In this document: positions 6,068 through 17,630 of the stretch, piece after piece
Numbering within the stretch: position 1 is the first letter of the stretch
Layout: each line of letters begins with the position of its first letter
From: Gammaproteobacteria bacterium
GTDB taxonomy: Bacteria > Pseudomonadota > Gammaproteobacteria > SZUA-152
Direction of reading: 5' to 3'
Length of the DNA stretch: 32,802 nt
Assembly (NCBI GenBank): GCA_013151355.1
Contig: JAADIL010000125.1
Coordinates: 1-32,802 of the forward strand
The notes under the pieces: model-generated
What the model was told of the DNA's origin: nothing
The model's database searches: none
What the model saw: the letters and a program-made list of their open reading frames with translations, nothing else
Translations under genes and position numbers: made by a program

Positions 6068-6215
6068 GGATAGCTCCGCAGGCCGGAAAAATCGGCCTCA
6101 AAAAGAAACACAGTTGTTATTGATAATGTTTACGCCGAAAAATTCAACCCGATTATGCAGGACTCTGTCTGACTTGTGAATCAGGCAATATTTGCACGCC
6201 TTCAGTTACGAAAGA

Positions 6216-6380
6216 TTATGGCGGTGCCAGAACCCTTTTCGGCTTGTTTCGGCACCACTTGAGCGGGTTACCGGGTTTGTTATTGTGGCGAACCTCAAAA
6301 TACAGGGCAGAATCCTTGTGCCCGCCACTTCTGCCCACGCTGCCCTGGTGGCTCTGGCCATAAAACTCCTTACAAGCGAA
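6216..6380 (-). pseudogene. Relic of the envC 3' end
   Basis: The minus strand encodes [20 protein letters not shown], then [21 protein letters not shown] and a stop at 6216-6218. The intact EnvC C-terminus reads [20 protein letters not shown], then [20 protein letters not shown]. Over about 110 bases the DNA is roughly 86% identical, and most changes are silent or conservative. Further upstream the similarity continues briefly (KEFYGQSHQG against SLYGGNQSL) with about 20 residues missing, then ends beside the intron relic. The relic sits where envC should end relative to ctpA, so it marks the left edge of islet A. Confidence 0.85.
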
Positions 6381-6394
6381 AGCCTGCTGGCGTA

Positions 6395-6800
6395 GTGTGA
6401 TTACCTTGTCCTTCGCCCATTGGGCAGGTTAACCGCAAGGCAAACTGTTGGAGGTTCGGATTGAGATGCTTTTATGAGGCGAATGGCCTGCTGTAATGGT
6501 GGGTATACCGGGTGAAATATTCCTGGCATCGTTAAGGAGGCTGATATCTGGCAGGTGTCTTGTCACGAGAACAGAGGTAGAGTCAGTTTTAAAAGGAAGA
6601 GCAAATGACGGTCTTGAGTGGGTGTGCGCTCTTTTGGCTAACGTCGTACTGACTGCTCTTTAGTATTGTGAAGCAAGCTTTTAGCTTGTGGGGCCCCCTA
6701 GTGGGCACTTTAATGAGGCTTGAGCTGTGTGATGGGAAACTATTACGCACGGTTCTGAGGAGGGAATCGAACAGCAATGCCCGTGACCTGCCCGGTGTTT
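6395..6800 (+). ncRNA. Group II intron relic without reverse transcriptase
   Basis: Bases 6722-6755 form a textbook 34-nt domain V: GAGC start with the AGC triad, GAAA tetraloop, two-base CG bulge on the 3' strand, and closing GGTTC. All stem positions pair, allowing G-T wobbles. A GTGTG at 6395-6399 fits the conserved 5' intron end, and 6420-6600 has domain-I-like sequence (GGTTAACCGCAAGGCAAAC, GGTGGGTATACCGGGTGAAA). No RT ORF is present, and at about 400 bases it is shorter than intact ORF-less group II introns, so internal deletion is likely. I cannot draw a clean domain VI, so the 3' end is approximate. It lies between the envC relic and the deacetylase gene. Confidence 0.75.
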
Positions 6801-6837
6801 TGACTAATCAAACAAGAATTGATTCAGGAAAATAATT

Positions 6838-7437
6838 ATGACAGAAAGGAGAAAAATTATATTCTCATTTGATGACGGCCCAAATCCTGCCGGGGCGCTC
6901 AGTACGATATTGAACACTCTTCAGAAAAATTTAATCACAGCAGAATTCTATGTTCTTGGCAACGAAGTTGAAAGAAACCCATCTGCGGCGAAGTCAATTG
7001 TTACTAAGGGACATAAAATTCAGAATCACTCATGGAGCCATCCTGACTTGGCAAAGGCAAGTGAGGCTAAAGTTTATTTGGAACTGGAAAAAACGCAGAA
7101 AATTATAAAAAAGGCAACGGGCGTAACGGCAACGAAAGTACGACCACCCTATGGTGCGGGTGGGTGGCCCAAGAAACATGATCCTGAACTGGGAAAGGTT
7201 GCGCGTAAATTATCATTAAGCATCCATAATTGGGATATTGATACTGAAGATTGGAAAGCACCGAGGGGTATTGGGCCTAACAAAATAAAATACATCAAAA
7301 AGCAGTTGAGCGGGAATAAAACGAAGACAGTGTTAAATGTGCTAATGCATGTACAAAGTGAGACAGCTAAAGATCTTTCCGAGTTTATTAAAATTTTAAA
7401 AGAGCCGGGTTTTTCATTTGCAAAATCAATCAGTTAA
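6838..7437 (+). CDS. NodB-type polysaccharide deacetylase, no signal peptide
   Basis: A 199-residue protein that is essentially one NodB homology domain. Motif 1 is FSFDDGP (10-15; D12, D13), motif 2 is HSWSHP (metal ligands H64 and H68), motif 3 is RPPYGAG (102-108) and motif 4 is NWDIDTEDW (131-139). Motif 5, normally LLHD, is LMHVQ with H171. The metal site therefore looks complete. Family members remove N- or O-acetyl groups from chitin, peptidoglycan or related polymers. The N-terminus is MTERRKII with no export signal, so the enzyme is either cytoplasmic or exported by unknown means. AGGA lies eight bases before the ATG. AT-rich codon use differs from the neighbouring envC and ctpA genes, consistent with transfer. 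Confidence 0.85.
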   Translation: MTERRKIIFSFDDGPNPAGALSTILNTLQKNLITAEFYVLGNEVERNPSAAKSIVTKGHKIQNHSWSHPDLAKASEAKVYLELEKTQKIIKKATGVTATKVRPPYGAGGWPKKHDPELGKVARKLSLSIHNWDIDTEDWKAPRGIGPNKIKYIKKQLSGNKTKTVLNVLMHVQSETAKDLSEFIKILKEPGFSFAKSIS

Positions 7438-7458
7438 GGTGAGGATGGGTTTTATCTG

Positions 7459-7812
7459 ATGTTTAAACTTGTTAACATAATGTTAGTGAGTCTTTTGACA
7501 GCTTGTTCTGTTTTTTTGTCGCCATTAGAGGAGGCGAGTGCAAAATACAAGAATAATAGAGATTATGAGAGCCTGCAAATCATTCATGAACATTTAGCGT
7601 TTGGCATTGAGCGCAAAGCAATTGAAAATTTATTGGGGGAACCAGATTATTCACCAACGGATGGTCTGTATTATTACTCTTCAAGCCAGCGAGTGTTTAT
7701 AGAAAATCAAAATAGATATACCTCTCCGGGATTAATCGTGGATTACCGGGATAAAAAGGGTGTCACTACAGAAACGCTTCGAAAATTTCAATTAAGGAAT
7801 ATTGGTGAATAA
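7459..7812 (+). CDS. Small lipoprotein, SmpA/BamE-like fold suspected
   Basis: A 117-residue protein with a short hydrophobic N-terminus and the lipobox LTAC (residues 13-16), so the mature protein should start at a lipid-modified Cys. The middle part, FGIERKAIENLLGEPDYSP, followed by aromatic YYYSS, resembles the helix-then-strand pattern of SmpA/OmlA/BamE-type lipoproteins, which have G-M-x-R-x-E-V-x-x-x-L-G-x-P repeats. This assignment is by pattern only. It follows the deacetylase gene by 21 bases, so the two are probably co-transcribed. It is AT-rich like the rest of islet A. After it, 7813-8049 holds no gene that I can support. Confidence 0.65.
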   Translation: MFKLVNIMLVSLLTACSVFLSPLEEASAKYKNNRDYESLQIIHEHLAFGIERKAIENLLGEPDYSPTDGLYYYSSSQRVFIENQNRYTSPGLIVDYRDKKGVTTETLRKFQLRNIGE

Positions 7813-8049
7813 ACGATGGTTTAGCTAATAAAAAAAACAGAAAAAGGGATCAAGTATCATATTGACGATTAGTGGGTAGAAAATTATCCTTCCAACCATG
7901 TTTGGACCACTCAAAATGGACGTTGCGTATGAAGTCTAAGATTAATCTCTCTAAATTGGCATCTAAAATAAAGCATCAATGTAATTGATGACCCTTTCTT
8001 TGCAATGGAGTTCAGGCAGTAGAGCCATCAGAAAAGTATCAGCCAGGTT

Positions 8050-8316
8050 GTGACCACAAATAGAAAGTTGACTGACCTTAGAAATATTGGCCCCAGGATA
8101 GCAGGCCGTTTAAATGAGGCTGGTATTTTTTTTGAGGAAGAGTTGAGGTTTTATGGTGCTATTGAGACACATAAAATGATTAAGAAAAACCATCCAAATG
8201 AAACCTTGCCAGTCTGCTATTATTTGTATTCTTTTGAAGGGGCATTGTGCGATAAGCATTGGGGTGAAATTGGAGAAGAGAAAAAGAAAAAACTTAAACA
8301 GGGAATTGCATCTTGA
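8050..8316 (+). CDS. Stand-alone TfoX C-terminal domain protein
   Basis: An 88-residue protein starting at GTG. It matches the TfoX/Sxy C-terminal domain pattern: LTDLRNIGPRIAGRLNEAGI (helix-hairpin-helix-like), then EELRFYGAIETHKMIK, then YYLYSFEGALCDKHWGEI, which corresponds to the LxALEGAxxGxHW motif. Full-length TfoX proteins, competence regulators in Haemophilus and Vibrio, also have an N-terminal domain that is absent here. Stand-alone copies are frequent in bacteria and have no firm function. It is the last gene of islet A and ends 26 bases before the 18-bp terminal sequence shared with islet B. Confidence 0.8.
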   Translation: MTTNRKLTDLRNIGPRIAGRLNEAGIFFEEELRFYGAIETHKMIKKNHPNETLPVCYYLYSFEGALCDKHWGEIGEEKKKKLKQGIAS

Positions 8317-8342
8317 CCTGGTTAGGTTGTTAACCAGAAATT

Positions 8343-8360
8343 ATGCATAACGAATCAGGT
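8343..8360. repeat. 18-bp right-end signature of islet A (attC-half-like)
   Basis: ATGCATAACGAATCAGGT occurs exactly here and at 17623-17640, each time just after the last islet gene and just before the flanking host-derived repeat. GCATAAC resembles the R'' core (RYYYAAC) that opens integron attC sites only loosely, because its third base is A. Here it is followed by an imperfect inverted repeat, GAATCAGGTT-AG-AACTTGATTC. Confidence 0.6.
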
Positions 8361-8377
8361 TAGAACTTGATTCACAT

Positions 8378-9601
8378 TTAAGACGCAGAGACTCTTTTTG
8401 GTTTGTTTCGACACCACTTGAGTGGGTTACCGGGTTTGCCATTGTGGCGAATCTCAAAATACAGGGCAGAATCCTTGCGTCCGCCACTCTTGCCTACACT
8501 GGCGATGACTTCACCAGTTTCCACCCAGTCGCCCACTTCCTTGAATAAACTTTGATTGCCGCCGTACAAACTCATGTAACCGTCACCATGGTCAATGATT
8601 ATAAGCAGGCCAAAACCGCGCAGCCAATCGGAGAAAGCCACGCGGCCGTGAGAAATGGCACTCACTTCTGTGCCTTCGGGGGCTCTGATATTCACTCCCT
8701 GCCATTTGAGTTTACCTGCTTTGCGGGTGCTGCCGTAACGAGTGATCAGCTGACCGCGTGATGGCCAGGGTAACTGCCCGCGCAATTTGGCAAAGGGCGT
8801 ATGCTCACTGCCTTCAGAGATCAGTTTCGATCCGATGTTTTCCGGCTGTCGTGGAACGGTGGCAAGGCTGTCCAGCAGGCCTTGCAGGCGGCGTTTGTCT
8901 TCTTCCATTGACGACAAGCGTTCACCCTTGGCGAAAATTTGTTGTTGCAATCCGGCAAGTACGGTGGCGCGTTGTTGTCGGGTTTTTTCCAGCTGCATCT
9001 TTTCGCGATTCTGTTCCTCGCGGGTTTTTTCCAGTTTTCGGGTTTTTTGCTGAATATTTTTTTCTACGGCGCGCAGTTCGGCAAGATTTTCATTGATATC
9101 TTGCATGCGCGCCAGACGGGCCCGGTGAAAATAATCGTAGTATGTGAGGGTGCGGGCAACGGCAGCGGGGTCTTGCTGGTTGAGCAGAATTTTCACGTAT
9201 TCCTGTTGGCCGATGGTGTAAGCCGCGCGAATCTGTTGAGCCAGTGCGATGCGGTGCTTGTGCAGGTCTGACTGTAACCCGCTACGACGGGTGTTGAGTG
9301 TTTTCAGTTCACGTTGTTGTGTGCGCAGCTGGTGTTTCAGCTTTTTCAGCAAAGAGACCACTTTGCCGATGTGGCGTTCGCTGCGCCGCAGCCTGGATTG
9401 CAGACTTTGTTTGCGCTGCACATCAGAATTCAGATCGCTGCGCAGCACCTGAATTTGTTGTCGCAACTGCTCCAGTTTTTGGGGGTCCGTCTGATCATTG
9501 TCAGCAGCCAGTGATGCTGATGACCAGCTGCCCAGTGTGAACAGTGACAAGAATATACCGAAGATAAAAGGGAAATCAGGCGTTTTCATCTCCCGCCACA
9601 T
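8378..9601 (-). CDS. envC: Murein hydrolase activator EnvC
   Basis: A 407-residue periplasmic protein. An N-terminal signal peptide ends near SASLAAD. About residues 37-250 are a long coiled coil ([17 protein letters not shown] and similar heptads) in the position of the FtsEX-binding and regulatory region. The C-terminal LytM domain (about 275-400) has [30 protein letters not shown] and [16 protein letters not shown]. The metal-binding HxH and first His of active M23 peptidases are missing, as in EnvC, which activates the amidases AmiA/AmiB at the division septum. The start overlaps gpmI by 26 bases; a second in-frame ATG at 9589 is equally possible. The last ~110 bases are duplicated as the relic at 6216-6380. 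Confidence 0.93.
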
Positions 9602-16477: not shown

Positions 16478-16555
16478 CCTGGCATATGACGGGAAATTAT
16501 CACGCACGGTCCCGAGGGGAAATGGGGCTGTGAGGCCTCTGATCTACCCGCCAGC
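16478..16555 (+). ncRNA. Decayed group II intron 3' end (domain V/VI remnant)
   Basis: The stretch around 16485-16515 reads like a domain V (ATATGACGGGAAATTATCAC, then GCACGGTCC) with the GAAA tetraloop and two-base bulge position. The 5' strand has lost the AGC triad and several pairs. The following GAGGGGAAATGGGGCTGTGA, then GGCCTCTGATCTACCC, is domain VI-like. No RT gene remains; a 77-codon ORF across this region lacks RT motifs. The stretch 16171-16477 has no gene I can support. Confidence 0.55.
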
Positions 16556-16922: not shown

Positions 16923-16942
16923 TCAGAATCATAGGTATGATT

Positions 16943-17205
16943 ATGAAAAATAATACGTGGCAATTACAAGAAGCAAAGAGTAAATTTAGCCAGCTGGTTG
17001 AAGATGCGATAAACAAGGAACCACAAATCGTCACAAAACATGGTGACATGGTGACAAGGCGGTGGTGATTTTATCATTTGAGGAATATACCAAAATCACC
17101 AAACCAAAAACGGATCTGGTAAAGTTTTTGCGGGACTCTCCCCTGGCAGAAGCAACGCTTGAAATTACAAGAAGCAAAGATATTCCAAGGGATATCAGTT
17201 TATGA
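16943..17205 (+). pseudogene. Phd/YefM-type antitoxin gene, frameshifted by an 8-bp duplication
   Basis: The frame begins MKNNTWQLQEAKSKFSQLVE, the N-terminal DNA-binding part of Phd/YefM antitoxins, and runs to GD. There ATGGTGAC occurs twice in tandem (17040-17055), shifting the frame to a stop at 17068. Without one copy, the frame reads THKHGDKAVVILSFEEYTKI-like sequence (TKHGD, then KAVVILSFEEYT) and continues to RDISL with a TGA at 17203-17205, giving exactly 84 residues. That stop overlaps the toxin ATG by four bases. The C-terminal half would normally neutralise the toxin. Another in-frame ATG at 16937 is possible. Confidence 0.85.
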
Positions 17206-17630
17206 AATACCTTCTTGATACCTGTGTAATCTCAGAAGTGATAAAACCAAAGCCAGACAGAAAAGTTCTCGGATGGCTAAAAAATCAAGATGAAAAAAGC
17301 CTGTATCTCAGCGTGCTCACATTTGGTGAAATCGAAAAAGGTATTGAGAAATCAGTTGATGAGAGGAAAAAAAACAAACTCAGATTATGGGTCGAGGAAG
17401 ACTTAAAGCAACGTTTTGAAGGGCGAATACTCCCAATAGATATGCAAGTGGCGTCCAGGTGGGGAGAGATACAGGGCAAGTCAGAAACAGCAGGTAAACC
17501 ACTTCCTTCAATTGATGGATTAATAGCGGTTACAGGTCTGGTAAACAATTGTATTGTAGTTACAAGAAATATATCGGATATGCAGCAAAGCTCCGTGGAA
17601 TTGCATAATCCCTGGGGCAATAATGCATAA
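17202..17630 (+). CDS. vapC: PIN-domain toxin, VapC/FitB-like ribonuclease
   Basis: A 142-residue PIN-domain protein. The acidic catalytic set is intact: D6 in YLLDTCVISE, E43 in TFGEIEKG, D105 in PSIDGLIA and D126 in TRNISDM. VapC toxins are Mg-dependent endoribonucleases that cut specific RNAs, often tRNA. The partner gene directly upstream is Phd/YefM-like rather than VapB-like, as in FitAB-type pairs, and overlaps by four bases. The antitoxin is broken, so this toxin must be unexpressed, weak, neutralised by another antitoxin, or the frameshift is not real. The stop codon lies within the shared 18-bp islet end. Confidence 0.88.
   Translation: MKYLLDTCVISEVIKPKPDRKVLGWLKNQDEKSLYLSVLTFGEIEKGIEKSVDERKKNKLRLWVEEDLKQRFEGRILPIDMQVASRWGEIQGKSETAGKPLPSIDGLIAVTGLVNNCIVVTRNISDMQQSSVELHNPWGNNA

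What the first reader, a model, noticed from the sequence alone, without database searches (positions are those of the whole stretch)
6395..6800. Short ORF-less group II intron with a perfect domain V
The domain V at 6722-6755 pairs fully and keeps the catalytic AGC triad, GAAA tetraloop and two-base bulge, although the reverse transcriptase is gone and the RNA is only ~400 nt. Conservation of the catalytic hairpin in a relic may mean recent deletion or retained RNA function. ORF-less group II introns are uncommon in bacteria.
Basis: partly seen in the sequence, partly recalled or inferred. Interest (0 to 1): 0.55.

Follow-up and report, generated by a model that had tools for sequence, protein, structure and literature searches.

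The report
Broken remnant of group II intron
This is the decayed 3' half of a bacterial self-splicing retroelement (a chloroplast-like, type IIB group II intron): its catalytic hairpin is still perfect, but it has lost its start, its branch site and its reverse transcriptase, so it is an ordinary fossil, of mild interest because the same RT-less version also sits in another genus.

Summary
Domain V at 6722-6755 is real and pairs perfectly (Rfam RF00029, 47.8 bits, E 1.4e-6; fold z = -5.2), and the reverse transcriptase is gone. The reading "short ORF-less intron, ~400 nt" does not hold. A profile of full-length relatives (EcI5-type CL/IIB introns) matches the window only from profile position 417 of 609. 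About the first 390-415 nt, with the 5' splice site, the exon-binding sites and most of domain I, are absent, and no match to the domain I model was found in the assembly. The "GTGTG" near 6395 lies inside domain I. Domain VI no longer folds, and the branch-point A is a G. The RT was lost by an internal deletion that left its ribosome-binding site and start codon (ATG 6605). The same ORF-deleted domain IV (71% identity) occurs at an unrelated site in another genus of the family, so the ORF loss is old. Between these two copies the ribozyme core is more conserved than domain IV (87% vs 71%, p = 0.0009), which suggests that the ORF-less form was once kept functional. The relic lies in a ~2 kb insertion between envC and ctpA that eight congeners lack. 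It is a dead fragment of a known kind.

The parts
6397..6461 (+). 3' end of domain I (the only part of DI left); the 5' boundary is approximate
   Evidence: profile match 6413-6604, envelope 6397-6607; pairwise alignments to L016-L020 start at 6393-6408
6462..6552 (+). domain III region (boundaries approximate); inner helices pair, base helix partly broken
   Evidence: alignment A1 and its consensus fold
6553..6719 (+). domain IV with the RT ORF deleted internally; shared with L062 of another genus
   Evidence: 71% identity to L062, score 35.5 vs shuffles 6.7 +/- 2.4
6591..6607 (+). remnant of the RT ribosome-binding site and start codon (AAAAGGAAG...ATG at 6605-6607); the frame stops after 15 codons
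   Evidence: aligned with RT starts of L016, L017 and L020; sequence
6722..6755 (+). domain V, intact
   Evidence: RF00029 47.8 bits; fold
6758..6796 (+). domain VI, decayed; the branch position 6790 is G instead of A; inferred intron 3' end 6796 (CCCGGT)
   Evidence: does not fold (z +1.2); all nine sibling copies shown have A at this position
6838..7437 (+). polysaccharide deacetylase ORF, starting 41 nt after the inferred intron 3' end; neighbour inside the same insertion
   Evidence: PF01522 E 2.1e-29
6343..8377 (.). insertion between envC and ctpA that holds the intron relic and three ORFs
   Evidence: absent from eight congeners, in which envC and ctpA are 143-232 nt apart
16485..16553 (+). 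second, weaker DV-DVI tail of the same subfamily, with a broken DV
   Evidence: 72% identity to 6730-6794; sequence

Best explanation
A dead 3' fragment of a chloroplast-like (CL, RNA class IIB) group II intron of the EcI5 type. Its lineage had earlier lost most of the RT ORF by an internal deletion in domain IV and was probably spliced and moved in trans by an RT encoded elsewhere. This copy then lost its 5' half (5' splice site, exon-binding sites, most of domain I) and its branch-point A, and domain VI decayed. It can no longer recognise exons, branch or move. Domain V is intact because it is short and decay is incomplete, not because of a present role. Shown: the missing 5' part, the ORF deletion and its sharing with another genus, the collapsed DVI and the G at the branch position. 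Inferred: past mobility in trans, and absence of present function.
For: A full-length profile matches only at positions 417-606 of 609, whereas a divergent control intron matches 3-553. No domain I model near the site or in the own genome, and no RVT_1 in the own genome. RT start remnant. ORF-deleted DIV shared with L062. Core more conserved than DIV. DVI does not fold. G at the branch position where nine siblings have A. Other RT-less tails in sister genomes. Reviews report that most bacterial copies are truncated or inactivated (PMC4424553).
Against: Domain V is perfect, including pairs that vary from the consensus. The assembly is 84% complete, so an RT or a separate 5' half could be missed. 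The shared ORF-less DIV rests on only two copies.
Confidence: 0.87

Rival explanations
1. A functional short ORF-less group II intron that splices with a helper RT from elsewhere.
For: Perfect domain V, ORF-less DIV, recognisable DIII.
Against: No 5' splice site, exon-binding sites or most of DI; branch A is G and DVI is collapsed; no RVT_1 in the assembly.
Confidence: 0.03
2. A split or rearranged ribozyme: a trans-splicing half intron, or a relative of circularly permuted group II RNAs, whose domain I lies elsewhere.
For: The 5' half is missing while the 3' half is still recognisable; permuted group II RNAs exist in bacteria (PMC8637638).
Against: The order is canonical (DI end-DIII-DIV-DV-DVI), not D5-D6-D1; no domain I match in 6068-8400 or in the own genome; branch site lost.
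Confidence: 0.03
3. The DV-DVI tail has been kept as a cis-acting leader or processing element of the downstream deacetylase gene.
For: The tail ends 41 nt before the ORF. Similar tails in G011 and G006 lie close upstream of small ORFs, two of which look like LysE-family transporters by eye. A cis-regulatory role was suggested for the RmInt1 fragment FRE652 (PMC5894124).
Against: The tails precede unrelated genes and differ in length; no conservation of a tail together with its gene was shown; DVI is decayed here; compact genomes place most elements near ORFs.
Confidence: 0.07

Closest known systems
EcI5-type CL/IIB group II intron, e.g. on E. coli plasmid pO157 (L017, NC_002128) and Serratia entomophila plasmid (L016, NZ_MT039156)
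   Same: Same sequence family in DI 3' end, DIII, start of DIV, DV and DVI
   Different: Those have a complete 5' part (RF02012) and an RT ORF; the window copy lacks both, and its branch A is G
ORF-less TeI3 introns of Thermosynechococcus elongatus (PMC2882425)
   Same: RT ORF lost by one internal deletion in DIV with an end of the ORF left as a remnant, and the deletion shared between copies at different sites
   Different: TeI3 introns are full ribozymes with driver RTs in the genome; here DI and DVI are broken, no RT was found, and only two copies share the deletion
FRE652, persistent RmInt1 fragment in Sinorhizobium (PMC5894124)
   Same: A long-lived, ORF-less fragment of a group II intron
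   Different: FRE652 keeps DI-DIII and lacks the 3' end; this relic keeps the 3' end and lacks the 5' end
Circularly permuted group II RNAs (PMC8637638)
   Same: Group II domains without an intron-encoded protein
   Different: Domain order is canonical here, not D5-D6-D1-D2-D3-D4

Membership tests
Group II intron (by descent) | Domain V with AGC triad, tetraloop and two-base bulge | tested here: met
Group II intron (complete, functional) | 5' splice site GUGYG and domain I with exon-binding sites | tested here: not met
   profile match starts at position 417; no DI model match
Group II intron (complete, functional) | Domain VI with bulged branch A | tested here: not met
   DVI does not fold, G at 6790
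Group II intron (complete, functional) | Splicing in vivo or in vitro | not testable with these tools
   needs RNA
CL / IIB (EcI5-type) intron | Sequence homology of DI 3' end to DIV and of DV-DVI to CL introns | tested here: met
   E 1.1e-16
ORF-less mobile intron (TeI3-like) | Same ORF deletion shared by copies at different sites | tested here: met
   two copies only, window and L062
ORF-less mobile intron (TeI3-like) | Complete ribozyme otherwise | tested here: not met
ORF-less mobile intron (TeI3-like) | Related RT encoded in the same genome | tested here: not met
   no RVT_1 in the 84%-complete assembly
Circularly permuted group II RNA | Order D5-D6-D1-D2-D3-D4 | tested here: not met
   (order); no domain I downstream
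Integron cassette (as the carrier) | attC-like recombination site in the insertion | tested here: not met
   no R-box pair with a folding arm in 6068-8400 (a simple scan of my own)

The most novel reading that the evidence does not exclude
An ORF-less CL group II intron lineage was active in this gammaproteobacterial family, moved in trans between genera and kept its ribozyme core under selection after losing its RT. The window copy and L062 would be its remnants, and the solo DV-DVI tails in sister genomes related debris.
Probability: 0.3. Interest if true: 0.35.

Novelty: new member of a known kind. Interest (0 to 1): 0.2.

Why it matters
[quoted passage not shown] Its value is as a case where the ORF loss can be placed before the split of two copies now in different genera, with the ribozyme core still conserved afterwards, a possible further example of an ORF-less lineage spreading in trans. 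It is also a caution that an intact domain V does not mean an intact intron.

Tried and rejected
Recent ORF deletion: rejected, the deleted DIV is shared with another genus. 5' end at 6395 (GTGTG): rejected, it aligns inside domain I. Circular permutation and trans-splicing: no DI found. Integron cassette: no attC-like site, although integron integrases occur across the family and a broken one in the own genome. A scan of genome contigs for an 18-mer shared by window and L062 gave only L062's own contig (L022) and one other match (L021) that has no group II match in Rfam and is taken as chance, several being expected at that length. The same 18-mer is absent from viral contigs. No further ORF-less copies in 369 class-level or 399 phylum-level sampled genomes, and no match to the DI-DIV part in phages. 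Folding the whole 418 nt was uninformative (z = -1.8).

Full report
What is there. Rfam finds one group II intron match in the window, RF00029 at 6720-6868 (+), 47.8 bits, E 1.4e-6. The hairpin 6722-6755 folds with every pair made, a GAAA loop and a two-base bulge, at -15 kcal/mol, with none of 200 shuffles as stable. It is the only RF00029 match listed in the 2.94 Mb, 84%-complete assembly, which also has no RVT_1 match.

It is not a whole intron. No Rfam domain I model matches around the site, and RF02012 is absent from the own genome. BLAST of the part before DV found relatives on plasmids of Serratia, Salmonella, Pseudomonas and E. coli pO157. These carry RF02012 in their 5' part and RF00029 at the 3' end, and three of the four records have an annotated RT between them (the Salmonella record is unannotated). 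From these four and a relative in the same genus (L061) I built a profile that runs to the RT start codon and, in the four introns where the 5' end GTGCGACA was located, from that 5' end; it has 609 positions. The window matches only positions 417-606, at 6413-6604, E 1.1e-16. A divergent copy that was not in the profile (G014:C61) matches positions 3-553. Roughly the first 390-415 nt, which hold the 5' splice site, the exon-binding sites and most of DI, are missing. The GTGTG near 6395 aligns inside domain I.

The rest of the ribozyme. The DI 3' end and DIII are recognisable. The consensus structure of eight sequences has 35 pairs, 19 of them with a compensatory change in at least one sequence. 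The window keeps the inner DIII helices but breaks part of the base helix. Domain IV keeps the RT ribosome-binding site and start codon (AAAAGGAAG...ATG at 6605), after which the frame stops within 16 codons. Domain VI folds no better than its shuffles (z = +1.2). The branch position is G in the window (CCTGCCC, 6790) and A in the nine sibling copies compared. From established knowledge of IIB introns, that A is the nucleophile of the first splicing step.

The ORF loss is old. In G014, a different genus of the same family, L003/L062 matches window 6449-6758 at 73%. It has the same ORF-deleted domain IV (71% identity; alignment score 35.5 against 6.7 +/- 2.4 for shuffles). It lies at an unrelated site, directly after an IS4/5-type transposase piece. 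Between the two copies the core (DI end to DIII, plus DV) is 87% identical (121 of 139) and DIV 71% (108 of 152), Fisher p = 0.0009. This suggests that the ORF-less form was still selected as a ribozyme for a time. It fits, without proving, movement in trans as shown for the ORF-less TeI3 introns of T. elongatus, which also derive from one ORF deletion that left ORF-end remnants (PMC2882425). L062 itself has since lost its DV loop and DVI.

Setting. Sister genomes carry many group II introns of several kinds. About ten copies resemble the window's DV-DVI; their 3' ends mostly read CCTACCCGGT or CCTACCCAGT. Only L056 shows RT sequence upstream, and it is broken. Several are short DV-DVI tails, and one more lies in the window at 16485-16553. 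The relic sits in an insertion of about 2 kb between envC and ctpA. In eight congeners these two genes are 143-232 nt apart without it, and none of the compared loci holds the three ORFs.

Conclusion. A dead, 5'-truncated, ORF-deleted fragment of a CL/IIB group II intron of the EcI5 type. A review states that most bacterial copies are truncated or inactivated and that true ORF-less introns are rare and nearly always accompanied by a related intron whose protein may help (PMC4424553). A perfect domain V is not evidence of function here, given the missing 5' splice site and branch point.

Noticed in passing
window 6225-6342 (copy next to ctpA) and 8386-8501 (end of intact envC); L054 4514-6073; L047 2912-3869: The 3' end of envC is duplicated on both sides of the insertion (87% nt identity). 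Two congeners have different insertions at the same place, also between duplicated envC tails but with different breakpoints (about codon 367 in the window, 338 in G007, 385 in G004): a Gp49-like toxin with an HTH antitoxin in G007 and a YefM-YoeB pair in G004. The envC-ctpA junction looks like a recurrent insertion site for small gene modules; the mechanism is unknown and no attC-like site was found.
   Followed up: partly
L057, L058 (5473-5534), L059, L121, L122, L124, L136; window 16485-16553: Several RT-less, very short DV-DVI tails of one intron subfamily are dispersed in sister genomes, many beginning within about 50 nt of DV, more tightly than random 5' truncation of a ~2.5 kb element would suggest; several lie just upstream of small ORFs.
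   Followed up: partly
3' ends of the same tails; window 6791-6796: The 3' end of this subfamily reads CCCGGT, CCCAGT or CCCGGC instead of the usual CCCGAY, so the penultimate A seems to be replaced by G.
   Followed up: no
window 16930-17630: A PIN-domain ORF (PF01850) preceded by what looks by eye like a frame-broken Phd/YefM-type antitoxin start, so a likely toxin-antitoxin pair.
   Followed up: no
G000:C46:1981-2902: A broken integron integrase in the own genome; 16 of 24 genomes of the order have an integrase over the TIGR02249 cut-off.
   Followed up: no
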